Below, in pieces: positions 17,750 through 62,149 of a stretch of DNA of 64,000 nt. The notes beneath the pieces are model-generated. The model saw nothing but the letters and a program-made list of their open reading frames with translations. It made no database searches and had not been told where the DNA came from. The DNA is from Romanomermis culicivorax (lineage: Eukaryota; Nematoda; Enoplea; Mermithida; Mermithidae), in assembly GCA_963922205.1 (NCBI GenBank), contig CAWUHX010000074.1, positions 1,178,001-1,242,000 of the forward strand, given 5' to 3'. Numbering within the stretch: position 1 is the stretch's first letter; each line of letters opens with the position of its first letter. The position numbers were made by a program, and so were the translations under genes.

Positions 17750-20700
17750 CCAGTGCATGCGTACCGACGTGCACTACAGTAAGACGACTGTTGATGGTCG
17801 GCGTTGCTCGCTCCACTTGCTACCTGCGAGCCTCATGCGCGCTTTGACAAAAATGACAAAAATCGGCAGAAAACACACTACAACATCACTTCTTTGTCTT
17901 CATCTTCCTCGTTTTCTATTCTCCTGATTCTTTCTTTTTTCCTTTTTCACCATTTTTTTTCTTTATTTGACGATTTGTCTTTTTCTTCATGTTTTTTTTC
18001 TTTCTCTAACGCTTTTCCGCCTATTTAACTTATTCTTGATGTCCTTATTGTTGTAACGTACCTGCTAACGCAGTACTGTAAATATGTAGCATACTGTATG
18101 TGATAGACATTTATTAGATATTATTTTATTTTCACATTTTATCGTCTCAAGGATGTCTGGGATTCATCCCCAAACATTCCTACAAAATTACGTGAAGTAC
18201 TTTATTTTGATCCGTTCACACCCCGGTAGCCCAATTAAGACGCCCCAATTAATTTGCACAAACGGCAGCTGTTCCCCTAGAACCCACACTAAACTACACA
18301 TTCCACAGCTACCGTAATCCCCAGTAAAAATCGTAAACAACACCTGCACACAGTAAAATACGTAGAAGCCCCGCCGTACAGTAGTCTCAAGTGTAATGGT
18401 AGCGGCGGCCCCACAAAACATGTGTATACAGAGAAACCGATACAGGAAGCATGCACAGAAGCACAAAGGCGTGGCCAAGCCCACCGTAGAAAGCAAGCAA
18501 AGCACCGAAAGCATACGATACCAGAAAAGCATTGGAGAGGCGTAATTAAGAAAGCATAAGAAGCGTAGCAGGAAACGACGATTGGCGGAAGAAGATGGAC
18601 AGAAGCTCGACCTCCCGCGACGCCCAGGGAGTGGCCAGAATCGCCGTATAAAAGAAGAAGCAAAGCGTGATTTAGGCATTCTTATTCTTGTGGTTTTTCC
18701 GTTTTGACTTCTGCGCTCGCCCCGTCTTTATACATTTGCAAGCGGCCGACTATTCGAAAGCAACTTAAACCGAGGCCCCCATCCGTATTTTAATTCGAAG
18801 CGCGTTTATTGTCGACGTTCAAGCGACCGTCGATTACCCGTTGTTTATTGTAACCGTTCGCCCGGGCCCCCGTCCCGTTATTTGTCCCCGCCGTATTGAC
18901 CGATTGGTTAGAAGTAAAGTACCTCACACAAATCTGGTCGTTACATATTTTGGTGACCGTACCGTTACGTTAACCAGTGGAACTCCCTGCCCCAATTAGG
19001 TGTACTCTTATCCGGGCATTTAGAAGCATTAGATAATACAGTAGTAATCATTTCCTACAGTAAGACAGTATTCGTAGAAAGCAAACTGGAAATCCCCTCC
19101 AACGAGACATTAAGCGATACATTTAAACGAATACAGCGTGAAGCAAAAATTGAAGTATTTAAGCAGAAATCCCATCGTAAACCAAGAATGACCCACCAAA
19201 CGCAAGATCATTTAGGAGAAATCATTAGAGAACAGATAAACGATCTATTTTCAGAACATTTTCGTACCCTACGCACACAATTGAATCAGAATACAGTAAA
19301 CCCTACCCTAATAGACGATCTAAGAACAGCAAACATTCGTAATAACATGGCAAACAATTTCTACGCACACCTACAGTATTCACGGGCGGCGTGACCCAAC
19401 ATTTTGGTGAATGGAACAAAAGATTAGAACAATTCATGGCACTCCAAGGCATGAAAGATACAGACGTACAGTTAAAGTTGGCATGTTTAGAAATTCATTT
19501 AGGAGGAGCCGCGTTAGCAAAATTCAAAAGTTTAGCAAACTCCGAAAACCCTCCCCACACATACGAGCAGTATAAAGTCGCATTACAGGCATTTTTCCCA
19601 AACAATAGAGATAATGAGCTACATCAACAATTCTTACGCGAAAGAAAACAAAAGCGATCAGAAACAGTAACGGAATTCTTATTTGATCTAGAACATCTTG
19701 CTACCCTCGCCTACCCTAACTTTAACACAGACGCATGAGAAATGATCATAAAACCCCTCTTTGTAGAAGGCATGCAAAACGAAATCAGGGAAGCAATTAA
19801 GTATAGAAGGTTCGCAACTCTAAAAGAAATGTCAGACGAAGCAGCTTACATTGAACAGCAAATTCTTAGAAACGAGTTAAAATCTAACGTCCTTCCCTTC
19901 ATACCCCCAAAACCCAAACCCATCTTTTCCCAAACCAAAAATACAGACCAACAGGATCTTTTGCATCAGTTAGAACAACAAGTAAAAGATTTACAGTTGC
20001 AGATCAAACAAAAACCTCAACCCCCACAACAGAGTAGCTACAACAATTTCAGTAACAATACTTTCAGCAGGAATAATGCTTACAGGAACAACACCACCCC
20101 TAGGCAACCCACATGCTTCCAGTGTGGACAAATCGGACACGTAGCTCGTAATGGTAAATCAGTAGGCACCCGAAAATCATGTGAAATCTGTTTCCGTAAT
20201 AATCACAGTACACGTGATTGTAAAAGCCGATGCATCCACTGCTCCCAAACAGGACATAGATCAGATAACTGCCTTTCAAAACCCTACTCCAATTTTCAAT
20301 GCTTTATATGCAAGCAGAGAGGTCATACAAGCAGGTATTGCCCAAATCAGCAGAGTCGTAATATTCAAAATTGCATTGAGTACAGGCAACCCCAACCCCT
20401 CATGGACATTGACGATCCCGCATTTTACTCAAAATTACCCGCCATAACTAACGGCCCTCAGACTACTTTAGGAACTATCATGCCCAACACCCACTGCCGT
20501 AGTGAGGAATACGTCCTTGATCTGGACGTACCTAATTGGTGCGCCATGTCACCACCCCCCACGCCTGAAGCCGCAAAAATCGAAAAATCGCCGCCCACCA
20601 TCCCCGTAGGCTACAAGATCCCCCGAAAGCAAGACACTACACCGCCCACCGCCCCCGAAACCCCGTCAAAAACAGGCCGCAACTTGTTATCCCTTCTCCA

Positions 20701-23700
20701 TGGCCTGACCCCCGAACCCTACCAATTCCGCCCCCACCAAACACTTCTACCGACCCCCATAAGTAAGCAAGTCCAAACCCCATCCCATAACTCAACTTCT
20801 AAAGTTTTACAGAACGTTCAGACTGCAAACCGGCCACCCCCCAGCTCAAAATCGCAAAACGACAACACCAAAAACCGCCACGCCAAATCGAGCAGAGCGA
20901 AAAAACACAGTACCCCGCCGCCTCCACTAAAACACTACATTGGCCATTGTATTGTATATTTTTATGTATAATAATCCCCACATCGTGTAGTGCCCAATTT
21001 CAGAAATGTGGAACTTCATTGAGCGGTCACTCAGTCAGCATACCAAAACTTGTATCATGCATGCCCCCTTCCACAGTAGACAAACCCGTACAAACATTCG
21101 GAAAAATCTATATCCCCTCCACTAAGCCCCACATTACAGACGCATACAAATGCAGTGTTCGCAAACGCAAAATTTGTACTAATACAGGATTTTTTGGATC
21201 AAAAGGTATTGTCTTCAACCAAACCGAAATGCAAAATCTAACCCCACATGTTTGTAAGGCAATCGTTATAGACAAAGAACACAACGGTCAAAAATTATAG
21301 GAAACCCAACCAGGATTTTGGTCAACAAATAACTCCCTAAGCGTAGAATACACATGGTGTTGTACAGACCATTGTACCTCGGTCACTAACGTCATCATAG
21401 AAATAGGACAAATAGCATCTTGGAATGGAAAATCTATGACAGGTACATTAGGCGACCTAGGGTCATGCAAACCGACATCAGGTCATTGTGTCACATCCGA
21501 CGGATCTATTATCTGGAATGAAACAGCATTTGAAAACTTATGCCCCTTCGAATACAAAAATACACATCCCATAAAACTCACGCCAACCCACATGATAATA
21601 GAAGAGCTACAAGGTGCATTTTCGGTTAAAAACACACTCTTTTCAAACCCCAATTGCCCAGAAATCCAAGACAGCATTCTAACCGAACAAGGCATTATTG
21701 TACAATTAGACAAAAGCACACCACATCATAACACATTTTTAACCCCAAAAACCAACGAAACTCATACTACACTATACGATTTTGATGATTTTGAACCCAT
21801 CAATGCAAAACTAAACTATCTAGCAGAAAAATACAGGAATTCGAAATTCAAAATTTCAAAAATGTATGGAATGAATTATGCAGACAGGCACAGCGTCACC
21901 TTGATCTCGTATGGCAAATTTTACCTCTTGATGCAAGCCTTGGAGCGCCTGCATTCCTACAGCGAACGGACATCATAGCAGAATTCACAGGAGAAGCCCT
22001 CACAGTCTGGCCCTGCAAGCAGGTAAACGCATCCAAAGTCTTTTACAACCATAAAATCAACCAAACATGCTACAAACTTTTACCCATTCTTGTAGGAACC
22101 GAACTCATGTTTTCAAATCCAGGAGGCAACGATTTGACCCCTTTCTCACAAACCGTTGACTGCCATCACATGCATGTAGCCCTTTACAAACAGAATAATA
22201 CATGGTTCAGTGAAACAGGATCCCCGCATGTCACAAATCTACCTTTAGAAATCGTCTGGAACCAAAATTTCTCCCTTTTTCATTTTAATACACCCGCCAT
22301 TTTTCATGATCAACTTGCAACTATTTCAACCAACTTACTCTTTTTGAAACAATACATTTACAAAACTCACACACTCGAAAACATTGTCACAAAACTCGTC
22401 AATTACACCGCCCAAATGTCTCTCAATTCCGATACAGTTTACAACATGATCTCAGGCACTGGCCAAGCACTCGGAAATACACTCTCTGGCGCCGGTCAAG
22501 GCATAGAACATGTAATAACCGGTACCACCCAAAGTCTCACGGACGGATTAAACAATTTACTCAAAGGACCCCTGCAAATCATTATCAATCTCGCCGTTAT
22601 TACTGTAGTTATTGCAGGCGTCTTTTATTCGTTTCTCGTTCTTCGAAAATATTTCCCCTCTCCAAAGCATCATGCCACACACGAACATGCATACGAAATA
22701 CCATCAAACCACAGACATTTACATGAGACCATTCCCCCATCATTCGGCCATGCTCTCTTAGAATTAGCTAATCGTCGTGGGGCACAAACACAGCAGAAAT
22801 ACGTCCTTGTCGATATTGATACCCCCCGAACCCCTGCAATTGAACTCATTAACCAAATTCACCAATCTGCATCAGATAAGCCACCCCAAAATGTACCTGA
22901 AAAACATACCCCTCACATTCCGATCACACTTAATGGCAAATTAATGACAAAAGGCATGATTGACACTGGTGCAGTTTACTCACTCATTGATTCCCGAATC
23001 GCTCAAATCCTACAGTTAGACATGAAACCCCCGCTAGTCCAAGCAAAAGCAGCAAATAATCTCCCAATTCACTTTGTAGGAACCACTTTTGTCACAGTGA
23101 CAGCCCAAACAATCCAGGAAACGATAATGGTTCATGTCCAAAAAGATTGCACAGCAGACATCCTTCTAGGCAAAAACTTTCTCAGTCGATTTTCGGAATA
23201 CACTATCAACAATCAAAAATCACAGGTCAAATTTGGCAATGTTATACTACCTTGTGATGGCCTAGAATATAGCCCTCTTTCAACTCGTGGTGGAACTTAT
23301 TTGGATGAAAAATTAGAATTACCACCCCGTACAGTAACCGAATTTACTGTCCCCTTGCCCAAATCGTACCTACAGGTCAAACAGCTTGAATTCACTCCGA
23401 AACCCAAACAGAATCCCAAAGTCCATTTCACAGCTTGTATCTCGGAAAATCAAAACAGTCGCATACGCATATCCGTCCTAAACACACAAGAAACAGCTCA
23501 AATTCTTTATCCTGGAACATGCATTGGTACAGTCTCATGTTACATCCCAAAACAAAATGCTCCCGCTAATCTAACCCCTTCAACGCAAAACCAGCCCAAC
23601 CGTTTTGATACATTCACATGGTTAAAAGCAAATGTTAATTTAACCTCCAGTGACCTCACAGAAGCAGAAAAAACGCAACTCCTACGCGCGATATCGAAGT

Positions 23701-26700
23701 ACCCTACATTATATGCTAAATCCAAAATGGACGTAGGCAGAACCACCCTCGTTTCACATACAATTGACACCAATGGCTCCCAACCCGTACGTAGACAACT
23801 TTATCGGACTTCCCCAAAAGAAAAGCAAATCATACAAGCAGAAGTTGAGCAACTCGCAGCAGCAGGTGTCATAAGCCAAAGCAATTCCCCATGGTGTACC
23901 AACACAGTTTTAGTCCCCAAAAAAGATGGAGGCCATCGTTTATGCATTGATTTTAGAGGCCTCAATAAAGTAACCAAAAAAGATACATACCCCCTGCCCG
24001 GCATAGACGAAATTTTAGACACCCTACGTGGAATGAAATATTTCACCTCCCTTGACCAATCCAATGCATATTATTCCATTCCCATAGCACAAGCAGACAG
24101 AGAAAAAACTGCATTCAATTGCTCAGCCGGCCAGTATCAATTCAATTACCTCCCTTTTGGACTCACCAATGCCCCAGCCACATTCCAAAGGTTAATGGAT
24201 GTTATTCTTTCGGGTCTGCAATGGAACACATGCCTTGTATATCTCGACGATGTTTTGGTATTCGCAGACTCCCATGCCCAAATGCTGGAACGTTTAGACA
24301 CTATTCTTGCCCGATTCTCACAAGCAGGCCTTAAGCTAAACATACAAAAATGCAAATTCTGCCAGCCCCAAGTCCAATACTTAGGCCACGTCATTTCTCA
24401 GCAAGGCATTTCACCAGATCCCCATAAGGTACAGGCCATCTATGACATACCCACACCCAAAAACTCAAAAGAAGTTAAGTCATTCCTTGGCCTACCCTCA
24501 TATTATCGCAGATTCATCCCAAATTGCTCTCAAGTTTCTAGCCCACTCACATCGCTACTCAAAAAGAACTCAGAATTTTCCTGGGGCCCTGAACAGCAAA
24601 ATGCATTCACTAAGCTAAAAGAATTACTCATTCATGCCCCAATACTGCAGCACCCCGACTTCACAAAACCGTTTATTCTGCAAACCGACGCCTCAAAACT
24701 GGGAATCGGCGCCATTCTCAGTCAGCTAGATAGTAAAGGTCAGGATCGCCCCATTGCTTTTGGGAGCCGCACATTGAAACCCGCAGAACGCAACTATCCG
24801 ATCACTGAGTTGGAAACCCTTGCAGTAGTCGAATTTGTCAAGTATTTCCGCCCTTATCTTTTCCAGCAACATGTTATCGTACACACTGACCACACAGCAG
24901 TTCAGGCAGTCTTACAAAAGGAAAACCAGTCCCCTCGCATTGCCCGTTGGGGATTAGCCCTCTCTGGTATTCAGCTAGACATTCGCCCTAAGAAAGGCAC
25001 TGCTAACCGCAACGCAGATGCACTTTCTCGATTCCCCTCACAAACAGCAAAGCAATCCTTTCATATTGAGCAATTAGAAACCCGTCCCGAAATATCCACC
25101 ATCAATTCAGTTTTGGAAGCCGAAGCAACTGAACAAGAAGAGCAACAGAAAAATTTTGCCGAACTCCAACGCACTGATCCAACTGTCAAAAGCATAGTAG
25201 CAAAAATCGCCCAAAAACACCCCCTCACTCTGATCAAATTCGCAGTGCATCAAAACATTCTCTTCCGTATAGTCGACAAACAGGCAAAACTATACATTCC
25301 TAAGTCGCAAGTCCAGCATCTCATCGCCTCACATCATGACAGCAAATCCACAGGTCATTTTGCGGCCCGGAAAACTTTACACTTGCTCAGACAGAAATAT
25401 TTTTGGCCCCAAATGAGCCGTGATATCAAACGTTACTGCAAAACTTGCCACCCATGCCAGACACAGAAAGCTCTTAGACACAAAGTGCATGCAAACCTGG
25501 TACCAATTCAGCCGACTGGCCCATTTGATAGAGTCGGTGTTGATTGCATGGGACCGTTACCCCTCACTGAAGACGGCAACCGATTCATTGTTGTTTTCAT
25601 CGATTATTCCACAAAGTATGTAGAGGCATTCCCGACCCCTGACATCACTGCAGCCACTATTGCCAAGCTATTCGTAACCAAAATTGTTTGTCGTCATGGG
25701 TCCCCAAAAATCCTCCATTGTGATCGTGGCACCGATTTTGTATCTGATCTCTTCTCACGGATCACCAGTTTATGCAATACTCAGAAAATTCACACTACCC
25801 CATATCATCCCATGGCCAATGGGGAAGTTGAGCGTTGCAACCAAACCCTAGCCACCCGTATCCGCATGTACATCAATTCAAATCACACTGATTGGGATAC
25901 TTATCTGCACTATGCCATTTTTTCGATCAACATCCATAAAAATGATAGCACATCATATCCCCCATTTGAATTACTCCACGGTAGACAAGCTAATCTGCCG
26001 TCAGATGCAGCTTTAAATTTTTTCCCCACGTCCTACATGGTTGATTTAGATGATTACGCCCTTCGTGTAAGATCGCATTTTACAGAAGCACTCTCAACCA
26101 TGCAGAAAAGTCTGCAAAAAGCCCAAGCCCACTATACCCGTCAGTATAACAAGCACGCCCAGAACATACATTACAAGGCAGGTGATCTTATTCTCTACAA
26201 AAATCATTCGTGTAAACAAGGGCTGACTCCCAAATTCCTCCCTCGCCAAAACGGACCCTATACAGTTACAAATTTCATGTACCCCAACGTTACACTTAAA
26301 CACCCCCATAAGAATATTACATTTACGGTGCATGTAAACGAGACAACCCCTTTCTACCTCGGAAAGCAACTATCGAATCTACCCCCACCCTTCCCCAACC
26401 TCGAAAGCCTTGAACGAGGACGTTCAACTCCGGAAGGAGGGAAATGTAACGTACCTGCTAACGCAGTACTGTAAATATGTAGCATACTGTATGTGATAGA
26501 CATTTATTAGATATTATTTTATTTTCACATTTTATCGTCTCAAGGATGTCTGGGATTCACACCCAAACATTCCTACAAAATTACGTGAAGTACTTTATTT
26601 TGATCCGTTCACACCCCGGTAGCCCAATTAAGACGCCCCAATTAATTTGCACAAACGGCAGCTGTTCCCCTAGAACCCACACTAAACTACACATTCCACA

Positions 26701-56700: not shown

Positions 56701-59700
56701 TAATCAAATGTCGAGTTATTATGTCGAAAAAAATCTCTATCGGGTATTTTTGAAGGGCTATTCAGTGCGCTATAAATCATTCTTCAGAAAGAGGCGTGAG
56801 CTGAGAAAAACGAGTTTGGGTGATTTTAATATTTTGTAACTGTGTAAATTGACAAAATCTTAATCTTATGTTTACAATGTAAAGTTTTTGGTATCATAGA
56901 AAGATCATTTTTCTATCCGTGAGCTTTATAGCGTAACTCTCAATTGTTTCCGAAATATTCAGGATCAAAAAATGGACTGCACTTTTCGTCCAACCATAAT
57001 GTGCAAGACCTATTACCGCACGCTCTGCACGATTAGGGCTGCTTCTGTATCAGAGACTATGGTTAGATTTACTTTAGAGCCGGTAAGATGTGCGGAAACT
57101 TAATCGAGGATAACCCAGAGTACTGCAACAATACAGCTCCCGGTAACTGGTTCATCGTCGTGGACGCCTCTTGGTCCAATGACTATTCATTATACGAAAA
57201 AGCCAAAGTATATTACGAAGAGCAAAAGAAAATTGTCGATCAAATAATCGAATATATATCGAAAGTGAATGGTGGAATAGCCAATTCGGACGATAAGCAC
57301 GAAATTTGCATAATTTTAGTCATTAATGGTAAAATTGACGTCAAACGAAATTTGTGCAACAGTAAAACAGAAGGCAGGAAATCACCAACAAGTGATGGCA
57401 TCCGGCTGGGAGAAATTCTGGAGGAAATCGATCAACAATCTACACACTGCAATTGGAGACCCAACAGGCAACGTTTTGTCATTTGTAAGTGCTTTTTAAT
57501 AAATGTAACAACTTTTCCATGCAAAAAACGTTCGATAAAATCAAGACCTGACTGAAGGAGCAAGCGCAGGTGAAGTATCCCAGAGAGTATCGAGGAAACA
57601 ATCTTACTTTTGCGCCTCACGTTAAAGGTGCATCTTAACTTGGTGCCCTTCTTACTTTAGCGCCCATGTTTTAGTAGTGAGCGATTCCGGACTGAGCGAT
57701 TCCCGTCTGAGTGAGCGATTCCCGACTGAGCGATTCCCAATTGAGCGATTCCTATAAGCGTAATTCCCGTATGCGCGATTCTCAATTGAGCGAATTACCA
57801 ATTGGGCAATTCCAAACGGACGATTCAGGATGTAATAACACTTTCTTCAGATTTTCCTTCTTTACCCCATATTTTTCTTTGTATATAATTTTTTCTTCTA
57901 TTCTGTGTGTTGGTAATGTTTTCGTTAACGTATGTTTTTGCATTTCTATGTTTTGCCTCTGCTTTCTTTGATTTTATTTTTTCTCGTCAAGTATTATTTT
58001 TTGCTCGTGGAAAAATACATTACAAGTTTCCATATTTAAAAAGCTTTGTATCCCTAATAAATCTTATTCAATTCGTCACGCTCTATCTCCTAATTAATTT
58101 CATTGTTTGTGATTTTTTCTTCATTCTCACTTGCTTCCCATCTTAGTTTTTTGCTTTCACTTCTTCATCTTCATATTTTTTTATTCTCCTGATTCTTTTT
58201 TCTTTTTTCAAAATTTTTTTTTCTTCTTTATTTGACGATTTGTCTTTTTCTTCATGTTTTTTTCTTTTCCTAATGCTTTTCCACCTATTTAACTTATTCT
58301 TGATGTCCTTATTGTCGATGTTTAATTTCTTTTGATGTTTTGTTTCTTCCGGCATTCCTTTGTTCATATTTTTTTATGAAAATTTTCACACTTTCAACGA
58401 CGAAAGACCATAGCATGCCGAATTGTACAAGAGTCACACGGAAGACTACGGTTATTTAAAATGGTAACTTGTAATGTATTGTATCCTGAGCAAAAAAAAT
58501 AGATGACAAGAAGGTAGGAAATGAGAGAGAGCATAGACAAAGGTGAAAACGTAAAAACATGCCTAAACAAAAACATGAGCAATACACACAGAAAACGAAA
58601 GAAAAAATACCTACAAAGAAAAATATGAGGTAAAGAAGGACAATACGAAGACAGTGCTATTAAATTCTCGATCAACAGAAACTGAAACGCAAAAAAATAA
58701 AAACGAAAACTGAAACGTAGGGAGAAAGTGGAAACAAGGAAAGGAAACATGAACAAATATTTTGCAAGATTGGATAAAGCTAATAGAGTGGAAAATGAGT
58801 GGGCAAAAGAAAATCAAAAGATAAGACAGAATAAAAGTAGAATTTTTAACAAAGAATAGAGAACGCAAAGATAAAAGAGAATATTGGGACAGACAAATGG
58901 AAAAAGAAACGACAACTGAAATACAAGTATAAGATCCAACAAGAGAAACGGTGGATTAAATGAAACAGAAAACGAATATATGGAATAACACAATGTGTAA
59001 TTAAAACATAAAAGCAGTGGAACATACAATTTTGTGACTCAAAATAATGAGAATAGAAAGGGGTAACAGTGAAGGAATACTATGCAGAGAATAAAGAAAA
59101 TAAAGGAAAAGAAATAACAAAATGTCTAATGATGTATTTTCATACTCTTGTCACACCAAGTACTGTTTATTTTAAGATGTAAATTACTATAACGATCATT
59201 ATCAAAAAACAGCAGTTTACTAAAAAGTAGCACTTCCGGGAAAGTACATAATTTTCTTAGAGGAAAGTACATTAGATTTGTATATTGTAATGCAATGTTT
59301 AAAATTTAAAACTGCCCGTACAATTTTCGTAGATGAAAACACACATACTAGGCGCCTAAGTAAGACACAGCTTGATCGTAGAAGTGAGACAAGGTACCTA
59401 GGTAAGACGGGCGCCAAGCTGCGGCAGAATCACGAAAGCTCAAGCGTCTACTCACTTGGGTGCCTGCGTGTGCTCGTGCTGTTGAAAATAGAGCAGGGAA
59501 TGAAAGACTATTCGATTAATAATACCACCATTCTTATTTTTTTATTCATTGTTTCAGTTTTTCTGGCGTGGCATCATAGTGCGTAATTGTCCTACATGCA
59601 CATAGGAGGATAGGAAGGGGACTTCCCCCTACCTGAGACTCTAGAGACCCTTGTTTGAAAAATAGGGTGTAGCCAGGAGTCGAACCTGGGTTACCAGAAT

Positions 59701-61432
59701 TTTGGGCTGATGTCTTCACCACCAGACCACCACACTACGAGGTGAACCCCGATTAAGGTGCTCCCCTTGGCTACGATTTTTAGCATACAAATTCAATGCT
59801 TGGTGGTCGTGAACCTACGACCTTTGGCAAGTAGCAGCGTACCTGCTGCTTTGAACTGCCGACCAATGAAGTTGCTGACTATTTTAGAAATGAAAATTAT
59901 ATGGAATTTTCGGAGTGAAAATAAACTTCAAAAATGGGTGGTAGCCAGGAGTCGAGCACCTCAATCTGGGTTCACCTCGTAGTGTAATGGTCTAATGATG
60001 AGGACATCAGCCCGGAATGCTGGTAACCCAGGTTCGACTCCTGGCTACACCCTATTTTTCAAATTTATTTTTACTCCAGAAATTCCACATAATTTTCATT
60101 TCTAGAGACCCCTGTCTGGCCGGAGAAAATGTTTACACATCGCTGACAAAATTTTTTGTGAAGAATACTTTTTTGAGTATTTTTATGCATTTTGTGTACC
60201 ACAAACGTGTTTGTGAAACTCCTTTTTGTCTTTTTTCAGGCACGTAGCTGAGGAGGGAACAGGGGGAACTGGTCCCTCCGAATAAAAGCTTTTTGTTTTT
60301 CGACCACATAACTGATCAGCAAGTAAATCTTGCTGCACAAGTTAAATAAAAAGCCACTTTACTCAGCAGTGAGTTGATTGTTGCTATAACAGTAGTGAAA
60401 AAATCCTCTTTGATGCTTGAGGATACGTAAGTTATTTCCAAGTCTATTGGCTGATGCCTTTCCCAATTTGATGAAATGCATGAAAATTGCTTCAACCATT
60501 CCGGTTTCTATGGCCTATTGCCAACGGTCTTCCTCGGCTTTAAAATTGGTTAAAACTTTTTTGCGGAATAAAATTCGCGCCGGTGATTTACATTAACATT
60601 AACATTCAACGGTGCAAAATTCTTGAAAATTTGACTATAATTGATCCTTCTGCACTAAAAACCGATCATGCCATTAACTTCGCCTTGCCTTTTTCTGAAT
60701 AAGTATTTCTGAAAAAGTATTGTGATAAATTTATTTCTCAATCGGCCAAAAATTTCAACTAATAGTTTTCTTAGGTGTGTATAATTGGTCAATACAGTGT
60801 GTTTTTCGCAATTTGTTATATGTAAGTTACAAAAAAATTGGTCATCCCAAATAATCAGACCTAGCTACGTGCCTGTTCCTTTTCCTCACCGGCTACCCAC
60901 CCTCTCGATGAAAAGTCTGTGGACTCTCTTTAGGGAGCTGCAAGGACTGCAAGAATGCGTTCCGGCCTGGTCCGGCCAGGTCCTCCTCTCGGCGTGTGCC
61001 CGACCTGTAAAAGCCGCATTCTGTAAAAATGTGTCGATTTCCAGGCGCCAAAGTGTGATAGACGCCAAAGTGAGACAGGCGCTAAAGTCAGACGAGCGCG
61101 AAGCTGTGACACAATGTAACGATTTTATTGTTGCATTGTGTCACAATTTATTGTCATTTATGTAACAATTTACAGGTTCTTCATTATTCAGAGAAAACCT
61201 GACCAAATTTTTGAGCTGAGAGAGAGATTTAAATATGAAGTTGAAGTCTTGTGAAACGAAACCTATGAATATTAGCTGTGTAGCTGTCACAGTCTGGGTA
61301 TGTTGCGTTCTAGATTATTGAATGGATAATTTTTCATTATATCTTTTCCGCAGATATTGCCCAAAATGCTATGGAAGGCAGTATTGGCCAAGCGTTAAAA
61401 ATACTGAAACGGTGGGAAGAGGATCCAAACAG
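50605..61432 (+). CDS. VWA/TSP1-type membrane protein, copy 2 (5' part, runs off the window)
   Basis: Exons seen: 50605-50771 (signal peptide), 57078-57484 and 61354-61432 (VWA). Splice sites and phases equal those of copy 1. The MIDAS motif DASWS is kept. The VWA exon is 15 nt shorter than in copy 1, in frame. The exons for the Cys-rich, TSP1 and transmembrane parts must lie beyond 64000 if they exist. The first intron holds a 4.2 kb insertion with a helicase pseudogene; the second lacks the LTR elements found in copy 1. Confidence 0.62.
50833..51082. mobile_element. MITE, TAGTCTGTTTTT family, copy d
   Basis: It is the paralogue of 13003-13250 at the same place in the first intron; ends TATAGTCTGTATTTTATAAA and AAGAAAAACAGACTAT are inverted. 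Confidence 0.65.
51120..51775 (+). repeat. 400 bp dispersed repeat with an internal insertion
   Basis: Outer parts match 13296-13645 of gene copy 1 (GCGCGATAGCGTCAACCTA ... CAATTTTGTTA). The stretch from about 51262 to 51590 is absent from copy 1 and is the inverse of 8650-8820 and following sequence, so it was inserted after the gene duplication. Confidence 0.55.
51871..52137. mobile_element. CATACATGCACATAGG-type MITE with 8 bp target duplication
   Basis: TGGCCACC flanks the element (51863-51870, 52138-52145). Gene copy 1 has a single TGGCCACC at 13732-13739 and no insertion. Ends are ATACATGCACATAGG and CCGTGCATGTCTGGC, roughly inverted. The interior has long C-runs. Confidence 0.7.
52568..52738. 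repeat. Degenerate telomere-like array (TTAGGC)n
   Basis: It starts with several perfect TTAGGC units and continues with variants TTGGGC, TTAGCC and TCAGGC over about 170 bp. The exact unit is the telomere repeat of many nematodes. It lies inside the 4.2 kb insertion in the first intron of gene copy 2. Confidence 0.7.
53090..53290. repeat. Degenerate GGTCATTTCCACTAC repeat
   Basis: About nine irregular units such as GGTCATTTCCACTACTGC follow each other, 25-35 bp apart. An open plus frame (52992-53495) crosses the repeat; I do not consider it a gene. Confidence 0.45.
53733..54391 (-). pseudogene. PIF1/Helitron-type helicase fragment
   Basis: Two overlapping minus frames together show PIF1-family parts: LNNDQEKIFNQIINHL before the expected Walker A, then RLIIIDDMSMISNVT (motif II, normally DEISM), and NIVLLVDLLQLSPDN (motif III, normally GDLLQLPPV). 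Walker A is missing, conserved residues are replaced, and a frameshift lies near 54050, so it is inactive. Such helicases are carried by Helitrons, which replicate by rolling circle; no Rep domain is recognised nearby. Confidence 0.6.
54693..55965 (-). pseudogene. Unrecognised Cys-rich frames upstream of the helicase
   Basis: Frames at 55624-55965 and, shifted, about 55324-55611 carry irregular repeats of the form DxDCxxLNCxxCxxVKNR at about 32-residue spacing. Frames at 54693-55182 have CPGCKQQYIKC. They are in the same orientation as the helicase and probably belong to the same decayed mobile element. I do not recognise a family. Confidence 0.35.
56005..56440. mobile_element. CATACATGCGCATAGG-type element
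   Basis: The left end CATACATGCGCATAGGGGGG and the right end TTGTGTGCATGTATGAATGG are inverted. It borders the 4.2 kb insertion in the first intron of gene copy 2. It is non-coding, with a CCCGGGGATTATCCCCGGGC palindrome near 56028. Confidence 0.5.
57078..57484 (+). CDS. Exon: N-terminal part of VWA domain, copy 2
   Basis: The acceptor TTTACTTTAG ends at 57077 and the donor GTAAGT is at 57485. DASWS is conserved. Relative to copy 1 a 5-codon segment before SDGIRLGEI is missing, with no frame damage. About 15 residues differ, including ATDG to VING. Confidence 0.7.
57676..58680. mobile_element. Foldback element, LTR-free paralogue of 15440-27880
   Basis: The left end has repeated GAGCGATTCCCGACTGAGCG-like units and the body follows the copy-1 element closely. 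It contains the empty sites of the solo LTR (TCAC, 58157-58160) and of the Gypsy element (TTGT, 58312-58315). The right arm stops near 58680, before the terminal repeat array. Confidence 0.6.
59665..59736 (-). tRNA. tRNA-like sequence, 72 nt, extra copy
   Basis: It has the same cloverleaf-like form as 28933-29004, with A-box TGGTCTGGTGG and B-box GGTTCGACTCC. The anticodon stem has a mismatch and the loop is CCAAAAT, so it is probably a pseudo-tRNA of a mobile element. The corresponding place in gene copy 1 (about 28700) lacks about 90 bp including this sequence. Confidence 0.45.
59981..60052 (+). tRNA. tRNA-like sequence inside foldback, copy 2
   Basis: It is the paralogue of 28933-29004, within inverted arms 59886-60103. 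The acceptor stem has two mismatches (AGTGTAA against CTACACC), so it is more decayed than its partner. The B-box is intact. Confidence 0.4.
61354..61432 (+). CDS. Exon: second part of VWA domain, copy 2
   Basis: The acceptor TTTTCCGCAG ends at 61353 and the donor GTAGTG is at 61433. It is 79 nt, like copy 1, in phase with 57484, with Val to Ile and Gln to Arg changes only. Confidence 0.65.
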
Positions 61433-62149
61433 GTAGTGTTTTTCTTCTGATTTTATTGTACTTCGGTGGATGAAATCGAGGAGTAGTAGCCAATCTATTT
61501 TTTGTGACTATTCTGATCAAGTTGCTTTGTGATTGTATTACATCTGATTTTGTTTTTCTATTAGCCTTTCAATGTTTAAATCAATATTAAGATTTTAAAC
61601 CTTGTGGTGAGCAGCGAACTGGAGGCTTTTTCAACAATAACCTTTTCCGAAGAATCCGTTATAAAGAGCAAGTTTTACTCAGGACGCATTCTAAGAAAAC
61701 TTTCAAATCAAAGGGATTAGTCTCTCAGCCGGAACAACTTTTTAGAAGTTTTGATCATTTTCAGGCATAGATTTTTGAAGCTATGGTATGTTCAGAAACT
61801 CTGAAAAGTACTATCGTGAAGAGTACCATTGTACATGTGTACCGTTCTATTGGATAACCTGGCTACGCCATTGGATATTCTCCACATGAATCTAATGGGT
61901 TGGGTTAGAATAATTTTGCTGAAATTTTGAAGTTGATGTAGTTGTTCCATCAGAAATACCTATATGCTGGAACACAGCAGTGCCTGACAAATGCTCGATC
62001 TTCCCTTTTCCACCTGATTCGTCGGGTATTCCCATTTTACGATTAAAATTTTTCATCAAAAATGCATGATCATCAAGAATGATGGGCTGCCTCAGAGAAA
62101 AGCCATGAAATTCCACTTTGCGTGGTGAGACGAGACTGTAAACGGTCTT

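What the first reader, a model, noticed from the sequence alone, without database searches (positions are those of the whole stretch)
20947..26474. Gypsy element with an envelope-like gene between gag and pol, fused in frame to the protease
The sequence shows gag, then a signal peptide, Cys-rich ectodomain and transmembrane helix, then DTG, YLDD, RNase H and D-D-35-E in one continuous frame. Env-bearing Gypsy elements that I know (errantiviruses, nematode Cer/Tas, vertebrate retroviruses) place env after pol. If expressed as one chain, the signal peptide and the single helix would anchor the polyprotein with the pol enzymes still on the cytosolic side, which is topologically possible. This would be a new retroelement layout.
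Basis: partly seen in the sequence, partly recalled or inferred. Interest (0 to 1): 0.88.

Follow-up and report, generated by a model that had tools for sequence, protein, structure and literature searches.

The report
Retroelement with internal envelope gene
This is a damaged copy of a multi-copy Gypsy-type retroelement in which the gene for a virus-like membrane-fusion protein sits inside the main protein chain, between the shell protein and the enzymes, instead of at the end; intact relatives keep this order, which my searches found reported before only for giant planarian elements.

Summary
The core observation holds: in the LTR element at 18052-27338 an envelope-like gene lies between gag and pol. 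'One continuous frame' fails for this copy (gag and env are broken; env's C-terminal half and pol share one open frame) but holds for relatives. In the same 359-Mb assembly 59 of 130 scored env-bearing copies have a stop-to-stop frame of at least 2400 aa; in 12 of 20 loci it is open from gag's zinc knuckle into RT. Pol ends 34-44 bp before the 3' LTR in 10 of 10 copies checked. Env is a class III type (Monjiviricetes/gB) fusion glycoprotein: PF24664 in 7 of 7 sequences. dN/dS is 0.049 in env, 0.053 in RT. Env and protease trees of seven families, two from other samples, share one topology, so the layout is old and stable. It is not a new layout: Arkhipova and Yushenova 2019 (PMC6431247) described env in frame between gag and pol in the planarian giant Burro. 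New here: a compact, multi-family version with very young insertions, probably in a mermithid-like nematode (inferred). Single-chain expression is inferred; splicing was not tested.

The parts
18052..18945 (+). 5' LTR, 894 bp
   Evidence: 98.66% identical to the 3' LTR, TG...CA ends
18048..18051 (+). left copy of target-site duplication TTGT
18946..18967 (+). presumed primer-binding region, same 22 bases in 9 of 10 other copies
   Evidence: the tRNA was not identified
19188..20971 (+). gag with CCHC zinc knuckles, broken in this copy (frame change near 19.37 kb, TGA at 19736)
   Evidence: zf-CCHC E=1.8e-7; start MTHQTQDH in frame in 10 of 10 other copies
20935..20994 (+). hydrophobic internal signal sequence of env
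   Evidence: translation; hydropathy of an intact copy
20995..22565 (+). env ectodomain, class III type fusion glycoprotein; broken in this copy (TAG at 21298, frame change near 21.83-21.86 kb)
21855..22271 (+). PF24664 Monjiviricetes_fusion match
   Evidence: E=1.2e-14
22566..22655 (+). env transmembrane helix
22917..23189 (+). aspartic protease (DTG at 22962), same frame as env C-terminal half
   Evidence: PF13975 E=7.6e-8, PF13650
23913..24395 (+). reverse transcriptase (YLDD at 24240)
   Evidence: PF00078 E=4.8e-39
24582..24965 (+). RNase H
   Evidence: PF17919, PF17917
25296..25811 (+). integrase zinc-binding and core domains
   Evidence: PF17921 E=3.5e-21; PF00665 29.1 bits, below its 32.6 cut-off here, above it (39.5) in P0001
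26432..26444 (+). polypurine tract GGAAGGAGGGAAA
   Evidence: same in 10 of 10 other copies
26445..27338 (+). 3' LTR; in this copy the pol frame runs into it to 26474
27339..27342 (+). right copy of target-site duplication TTGT
58286..58345 (+). paralogous empty target site with a single TTGT

Best explanation
A Ty3/Gypsy-type LTR retroelement whose class III type envelope gene is built into the main coding frame between gag and protease. SHOWN: order gag-env-PR-RT-RNase H-integrase; a continuous frame from gag into RT in intact natural copies; nothing coding between pol and the 3' LTR in the copies checked; 4-bp TSDs and near-identical LTRs; env under purifying selection as strong as RT; the same order in five families here and in two proteins from other samples; env and PR co-diverging. 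INFERRED: unspliced RNA is translated into one Gag-Env-Pol chain of about 2,410 aa from the first Met. The internal signal sequence, after a basic stretch, sends the chain into the ER: Gag stays in the cytosol, the Env ectodomain is luminal, the single TM helix brings PR-RT-RH-IN back to the cytosol. Signal peptidase frees Gag from Env; the element's protease cuts Env from the enzymes. Gag, Env and Pol thus start at 1:1:1, Pol briefly membrane-tethered, and Env is displayed on particles that can fuse with other cells, for example soma to germ line.
For: Stop-to-stop frame >=2400 aa in 59 of 130 scored copies, >=2478 in 57; frame open from gag zinc knuckle into RT in 12 of 20 loci (best-scoring matches, not a random sample). 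Same start, same frame into RT and pol end 34-44 bp before the 3' LTR in 10 of 10 chosen copies; LTRs 0-5 mismatches in about 900 and 4-bp TSD in 9 of 10. dN/dS env 0.049, RT 0.053, PR to pre-RT 0.074, env tail 0.099, gag C-terminal part 0.267. PF24664 in 7 of 7 envs, gB chains of the PDB at best E=1.2e-5. Two hydrophobic regions only, SP and TM, in the pieces tested; 5 basic to 1 acidic residue in the 30 aa before SP. Identical env and PR to pre-RT tree topology for 7 families. P0001 has gag, env, PR, RT, RH, IN in one 2604-aa frame. P0002 has no Met in its signal sequence or in the roughly 55 residues shown before it, against a separate AUG just before env there.
Against: No RNA or protein data: a spliced RNA that starts translation in gag, or at the Met that family A has in its signal sequence, would leave the same DNA. 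Synonymous variation dips inside env (1-5 variable codons per 40 between codons 280 and 400 of the compared piece, mean 7.7; 8 copies), which could be chance, shared ancestry or an RNA signal; not followed up. N-glycosylation sequons are not clearly enriched (env 0.85-1.81 per 100 aa in 7 sequences; gag piece 1.33, PR-RT 0.92, pol C 1.21). The stretch after the TM is not net basic (2 basic, 3 acidic). Some copies have an in-frame stop between gag and env (L045 of family C, L048 of family D). Structure models of the two window pieces were poor (pLDDT 44.8 and 29.6). A 1:1:1 ratio is unusual for Gag:Pol.
Confidence: 0.65

Rival explanations
1. Env is expressed from a spliced subgenomic RNA, or gag-pol from an RNA with env removed as an intron; the common frame is a by-product or a fallback.
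For: Splicing is the usual route for env in retroviruses (recalled), and Cer1 of C. elegans keeps splice sequences that are used for its cerv mRNA (PMC10309623, passages). Family A has a Met within its signal sequence. Synonymous variation dips within env.
Against: Selection would not need env in frame with both gag and PR. Yet env and PR share a frame in families A, B, C and D and in P0001 and P0002 (the single E copy read, L041, is broken before its TM), although env differs by 40-67% among A-E. Gag and env share an open frame in A, in B (L049), in one of two C copies read (L057), in P0001 and P0002; the other C copy (L045) and D (L048) have one in-frame stop there, which for D is not a stop at that point in two other copies. 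Splice sites were not searched for.
Confidence: 0.25
2. Env is a passenger domain without entry function, kept only because it sits in the frame.
For: 71 of 130 scored copies have frames under 2400 aa, and no fusion activity is shown.
Against: dN/dS 0.049, as low as RT; invariant cysteines over seven sequences.
Confidence: 0.07
3. One-off recombinant or assembly chimera.
For: This copy has several frame breaks.
Against: Clean TSD and empty site; 130 scored matches to env's C-terminal half on many contigs; P0001 and P0002 from other samples.
Confidence: 0.01

Closest known systems
Burro / GYPSM1 giant Gypsy elements of planarians (PMC6431247, section 7 read)
   Same: Gypsy-type LTR element with env in frame between gag and pol in one polyprotein; that env hits fusion glycoproteins of arthropod and fish mononegaviruses; three CCHC knuckles in S. 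mediterranea.
   Different: Burro exceeds 30 kb with a 4,873-aa ORF1 holding MATH, BIR, ankyrin, BCL2-like and dUTPase-like domains; the element here is 9.3 kb, about 2,410 aa, with none of these in the Pfam scans. Sequence kinship with Burro could not be tested.
Anakin, BEL/Pao elements of mosquitoes with a chuvirus glycoprotein (PMC7642597, passages)
   Same: LTR element that took up a chuvirus-type glycoprotein.
   Different: BEL/Pao superfamily, not Gypsy. The 2023 follow-up (PMC10084718, passages) saw Gypsy fragments near such glycoproteins in insects and two nematode cases flanked by simple repeats, but no clear capture by Gypsy.
Errantiviruses and other envelope-carrying Gypsy elements (Chary and Hayashi 2025, not held, not read; cited in PMC13172572 and PMC12859917, passages)
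   Same: Gypsy with env; type III fusion glycoproteins occur in mosquito Gypsy.
   Different: Env is a separate ORF downstream of pol in the errantiviruses I know (recalled; PMC6431247 calls it a separate ORF in other gypsy-like elements); the order in their 289 baits could not be checked.
Atlas virus of hookworm, BEL/Pao (PMC9094657, passages)
   Same: Nematode element with one 2828-residue polyprotein that includes Env, without stops, and identical LTRs.
   Different: Order Gag-Pol-Env, phlebovirus-like class II Env.

Membership tests
Ty3/Gypsy (Metaviridae) LTR elements | LTRs with TG...CA, 4-6 bp TSD, PBS/PPT | tested here: met
   (tRNA for the PBS not identified)
Ty3/Gypsy (Metaviridae) LTR elements | pol order PR-RT-RNase H-integrase with Gypsy-type Pfam domains | tested here: met
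   that these domains mark Gypsy is recalled
Ty3/Gypsy (Metaviridae) LTR elements | RT phylogeny places it inside Gypsy | not tested
   no named reference RTs at hand
Burro-like elements | env in frame between gag and PR | tested here: met
   (relatives; this copy is broken)
Burro-like elements | giant ORF with MATH/BIR/ankyrin/BCL2/dUTPase domains | tested here: not met
   no such Pfam hit
Burro-like elements | sequence kinship with Burro env and pol | not testable with these tools
   no Burro sequence held
Errantivirus / vertebrate retrovirus layout | env after pol | tested here: not met
   pol ends 34-44 bp before the 3' LTR in 10 of 10 copies
Class III fusion glycoproteins (Monjiviricetes G / herpes gB type) | profile match | tested here: met
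   PF24664 in 7 of 7; gB in the PDB, best E=1.2e-5
Class III fusion glycoproteins (Monjiviricetes G / herpes gB type) | fold | tested here: inconclusive
   models too poor; fold search not available
Anakin (BEL/Pao with chuvirus Gp) | BEL/Pao pol | tested here: inconclusive
   pol domains look Gypsy-type, no BEL/Pao-specific Pfam family appeared, but which families mark BEL/Pao is recalled and no RT tree was made

The most novel reading that the evidence does not exclude
An old lineage of compact Gag-Env-Pol elements, found in more than one kind of animal, makes all its proteins from one chain threaded through the membrane by an internal signal sequence, so that Gag, Env and Pol are equimolar and Pol is delivered membrane-bound; Burro would be its giant offshoot.
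Probability: 0.4. Interest if true: 0.8.

Novelty: new variant of a known kind. Interest (0 to 1): 0.55.

Why it matters
A retroelement that keeps a selected, fusion-type envelope in the middle of its polyprotein breaks the textbook gag-pol-env order and its usual spliced env RNA. In the papers I found, the layout was stated for one group of giant planarian elements; here it is compact, in at least five families of one genome and in two other samples, with very young insertions, so its expression strategy could be tested directly in a living host.

Tried and rejected
Assembly chimera: rejected by the TSD, empty site and many copies. Host gene or non-Env membrane protein: rejected by PF24664 and gB profile matches. 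Passenger env: unlikely by dN/dS. Programmed -1 frameshift between gag and env, suggested by this copy's frames: not needed, intact copies are in frame. Overlapping ORF: in 8 of the 11 compared copies (those in the same phase) the longest stop-free run common to all is 123 codons in another frame. N-glycosylation enrichment: not clear. Structure prediction: two jobs, poor models. IMG/VR scans: no relative. Host identity by COX1 or 18S: not completed. Env-less control: in one copy each of two other abundant Gypsy-type families of the same genome (frames of 2005 and 2237 aa), the 1.07-1.08 kb fetched before PR shows no env by reading. Env-less copies of family A itself were not found or excluded: the search that could have shown them scored 150 of 4520 candidates, with these other families on top.
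Full report
WHAT IS THERE. The element spans 18052-27338. Its LTRs are 894 bp each with 12 mismatches, nine of them transitions, and it is flanked by TTGT on both sides. A paralogous target site without the insertion lies in the same window at 58286-58345 with one TTGT and matching neighbouring bases. It is a real insertion, not a chimera.

FRAMES IN THIS COPY. gag occupies 18957-19394 in one frame and 19346-20971 in another, with a TGA at 19736. Nothing follows pol: the frame ends inside the 3' LTR.

OTHER COPIES. The C-terminal half of env, searched in the window's own assembly (359,112,060 bases, 595 contigs), gave 130 scored matches among 3337 candidates at 94-100% identity (a lower bound; env-less copies cannot show here). 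The surrounding stop-to-stop frame is at least 2400 aa in 59 of 130 and at least 2478 in 57 (counted). Of the 20 loci cut out (the best-scoring ones, one being the window itself), 12 are open from the gag zinc knuckle into RT over the whole piece. For 10 of these 12 I fetched the 5' and 3' pieces separately. In 10 of 10 the gag start is the same, the frame runs from there into RT, the PPT is the same and pol ends 34-44 bp before the 3' LTR. LTR pairs differ at 0-5 of about 900 positions in 9 of 10 (three pairs identical) and 9 of 10 have a 4-bp TSD; the tenth (L015) has unlike LTRs and no TSD. The middle of pol was not fetched; one of the ten (L008, frame 2258 aa) must be broken there, the other nine have frames of 2478-2574 aa. 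From the first Met the chain is about 2,410 aa.

ENVELOPE TYPE. PF24664 (Monjiviricetes_fusion) matches the window piece at E=1.2e-14 and 7 of 7 env sequences, best E=8.5e-21; BDV_G matches 3 of 7 (best 8.4e-6), herpes Glycoprotein_B 3 of 7 (best 0.0021), Rhabdo_glycop_FD 1 of 7 (0.094). A profile of the seven finds five gB-type chains in the PDB, E=1.2e-5 to 6.6e-4 (one is named ORF8; that it is a gB is recalled). Structure models of two window pieces were too poor to use.

FAMILIES. PF24664 found 68 scored matches among 2320 candidates in the assembly. The 30 loci cut out fall into five groups: this family (A, 13), B (10; L049), C (3; L045, L057, L064), D (3; L048) and E (L041). Env is followed by the protease in the copies read of all five: by Pfam for A, B and C, by reading the protease motif for D and E (in L041 the frame breaks before the TM). 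Gag and env share an open frame in A, B (L049) and C (L057); L045 (C) and L048 (D) have an in-frame stop between them. Outside this genome, P0001 (2604 aa, JGI contig of 10,547 bp) reads gag, CCHC, env, PR, RT, RNase H, integrase in one frame, and P0002 (1500 aa) reads gag, env, PR. A search with P0001's env region found only P0001 itself and P0002. A third search, with the env alignment, gave three env-only proteins; one (P0005, 357 aa) is from Romanomermis culicivorax and is 76% identical to family B over 285 aa. This makes a mermithid-like nematode the likeliest host, but horizontal transfer is possible and no host marker could be read.

SELECTION AND HISTORY. Over 11 loci (L011 of the 12 left out because its piece is shorter), mean pairwise Nei-Gojobori dN/dS is 0.049 for env, 0.053 for RT, 0.074 for PR to pre-RT, 0.099 for the env tail and 0.267 for the gag C-terminal part. 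Choosing intact frames removes nonsense but not missense changes. FastTree trees of env (553 columns) and of PR to pre-RT (276 columns) for A-E, P0001 and P0002 have the same unrooted topology by reading, with local supports of 0.85-0.99 (PR) and 0.86-0.999 (env). Env was therefore most likely in place before these families split and was not swapped among them. In one copy each of two other abundant Gypsy-type families of the genome, about 1 kb before the protease has no env, which suggests that the insertion is a trait of this clade.

MECHANISM. The pieces tested (1295 aa from gag's zinc knuckle to RT, 377 aa of gag, 824 aa of pol) have two hydrophobic regions, the signal sequence and the TM helix. 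With a basic stretch before the signal sequence this fits a chain with Gag in the cytosol, Env ectodomain in the lumen and enzymes back in the cytosol. Sequon density and the charges after the TM do not help. Translation as one chain, signal peptidase and protease cuts, particle display and cell-to-cell fusion are inferred. A dip of synonymous variation inside env is unexplained.

KNOWN OR NEW. Ten literature searches in an open-access library. Among the papers I opened, one states the layout: Arkhipova and Yushenova 2019 (PMC6431247, section 7 read; the author names are recalled), for Burro. Chary and Hayashi 2025 could not be read, so whether their survey holds such elements is unknown. The element is therefore a compact variant of a known layout; the evidence here on stability, selection and recent movement goes beyond the section on Burro that I read.

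Noticed in passing
L076:3260-4585 (G000:C150:377283-378608), family D: After pol and before the 3' LTR, family D carries a 441-aa ORF with a weak PDB match to a Mut-7 homolog exonuclease (E=2.4e-4; no Pfam match), reminiscent of the DEDDy ORF3 of bdelloid rotifer LTR elements (PMC5408684, passages). A search lists 99 matches in the genome, many without stops at 30-40% identity.
   Followed up: partly
L071/L072 (C382), L073/L074 (C147), L079/L080 (C337), L075/L076/L081 (C150): Single copies of families B, C and D are also young: LTR identity 100% over 887 bp (B), 99.5% over 575-577 bp (two C copies), 98.1% over about 690 bp (D), with 4-bp TSDs by reading of the ends. No LTR pair was found for E.
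   Followed up: partly
G000:C54:987770 and G000:C80:379846: Two very abundant single-frame Gypsy-type families (frames near 2005 and 2237 aa) without env before the protease in the one copy of each looked at.
   Followed up: partly
L009 piece, codons 280-400 (env): Fewer synonymous differences among 8 copies than elsewhere (1-5 variable codons per 40, mean 7.7); cause unknown.
   Followed up: no
window 28706-30688 and 59754-61751: About 2 kb repeated at a spacing near 31 kb, 94-97% alike, holding tRNA-Ser (GGA) genes or tRNA-like copies; the element's target site belongs to a repeat shared with 58162-58672.
   Followed up: no
P0004: A protein named as Gammaproteobacteria (GY820 MAG, contig 1383 bp) is an env of this type, most likely animal DNA in a metagenome bin.
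   Followed up: no
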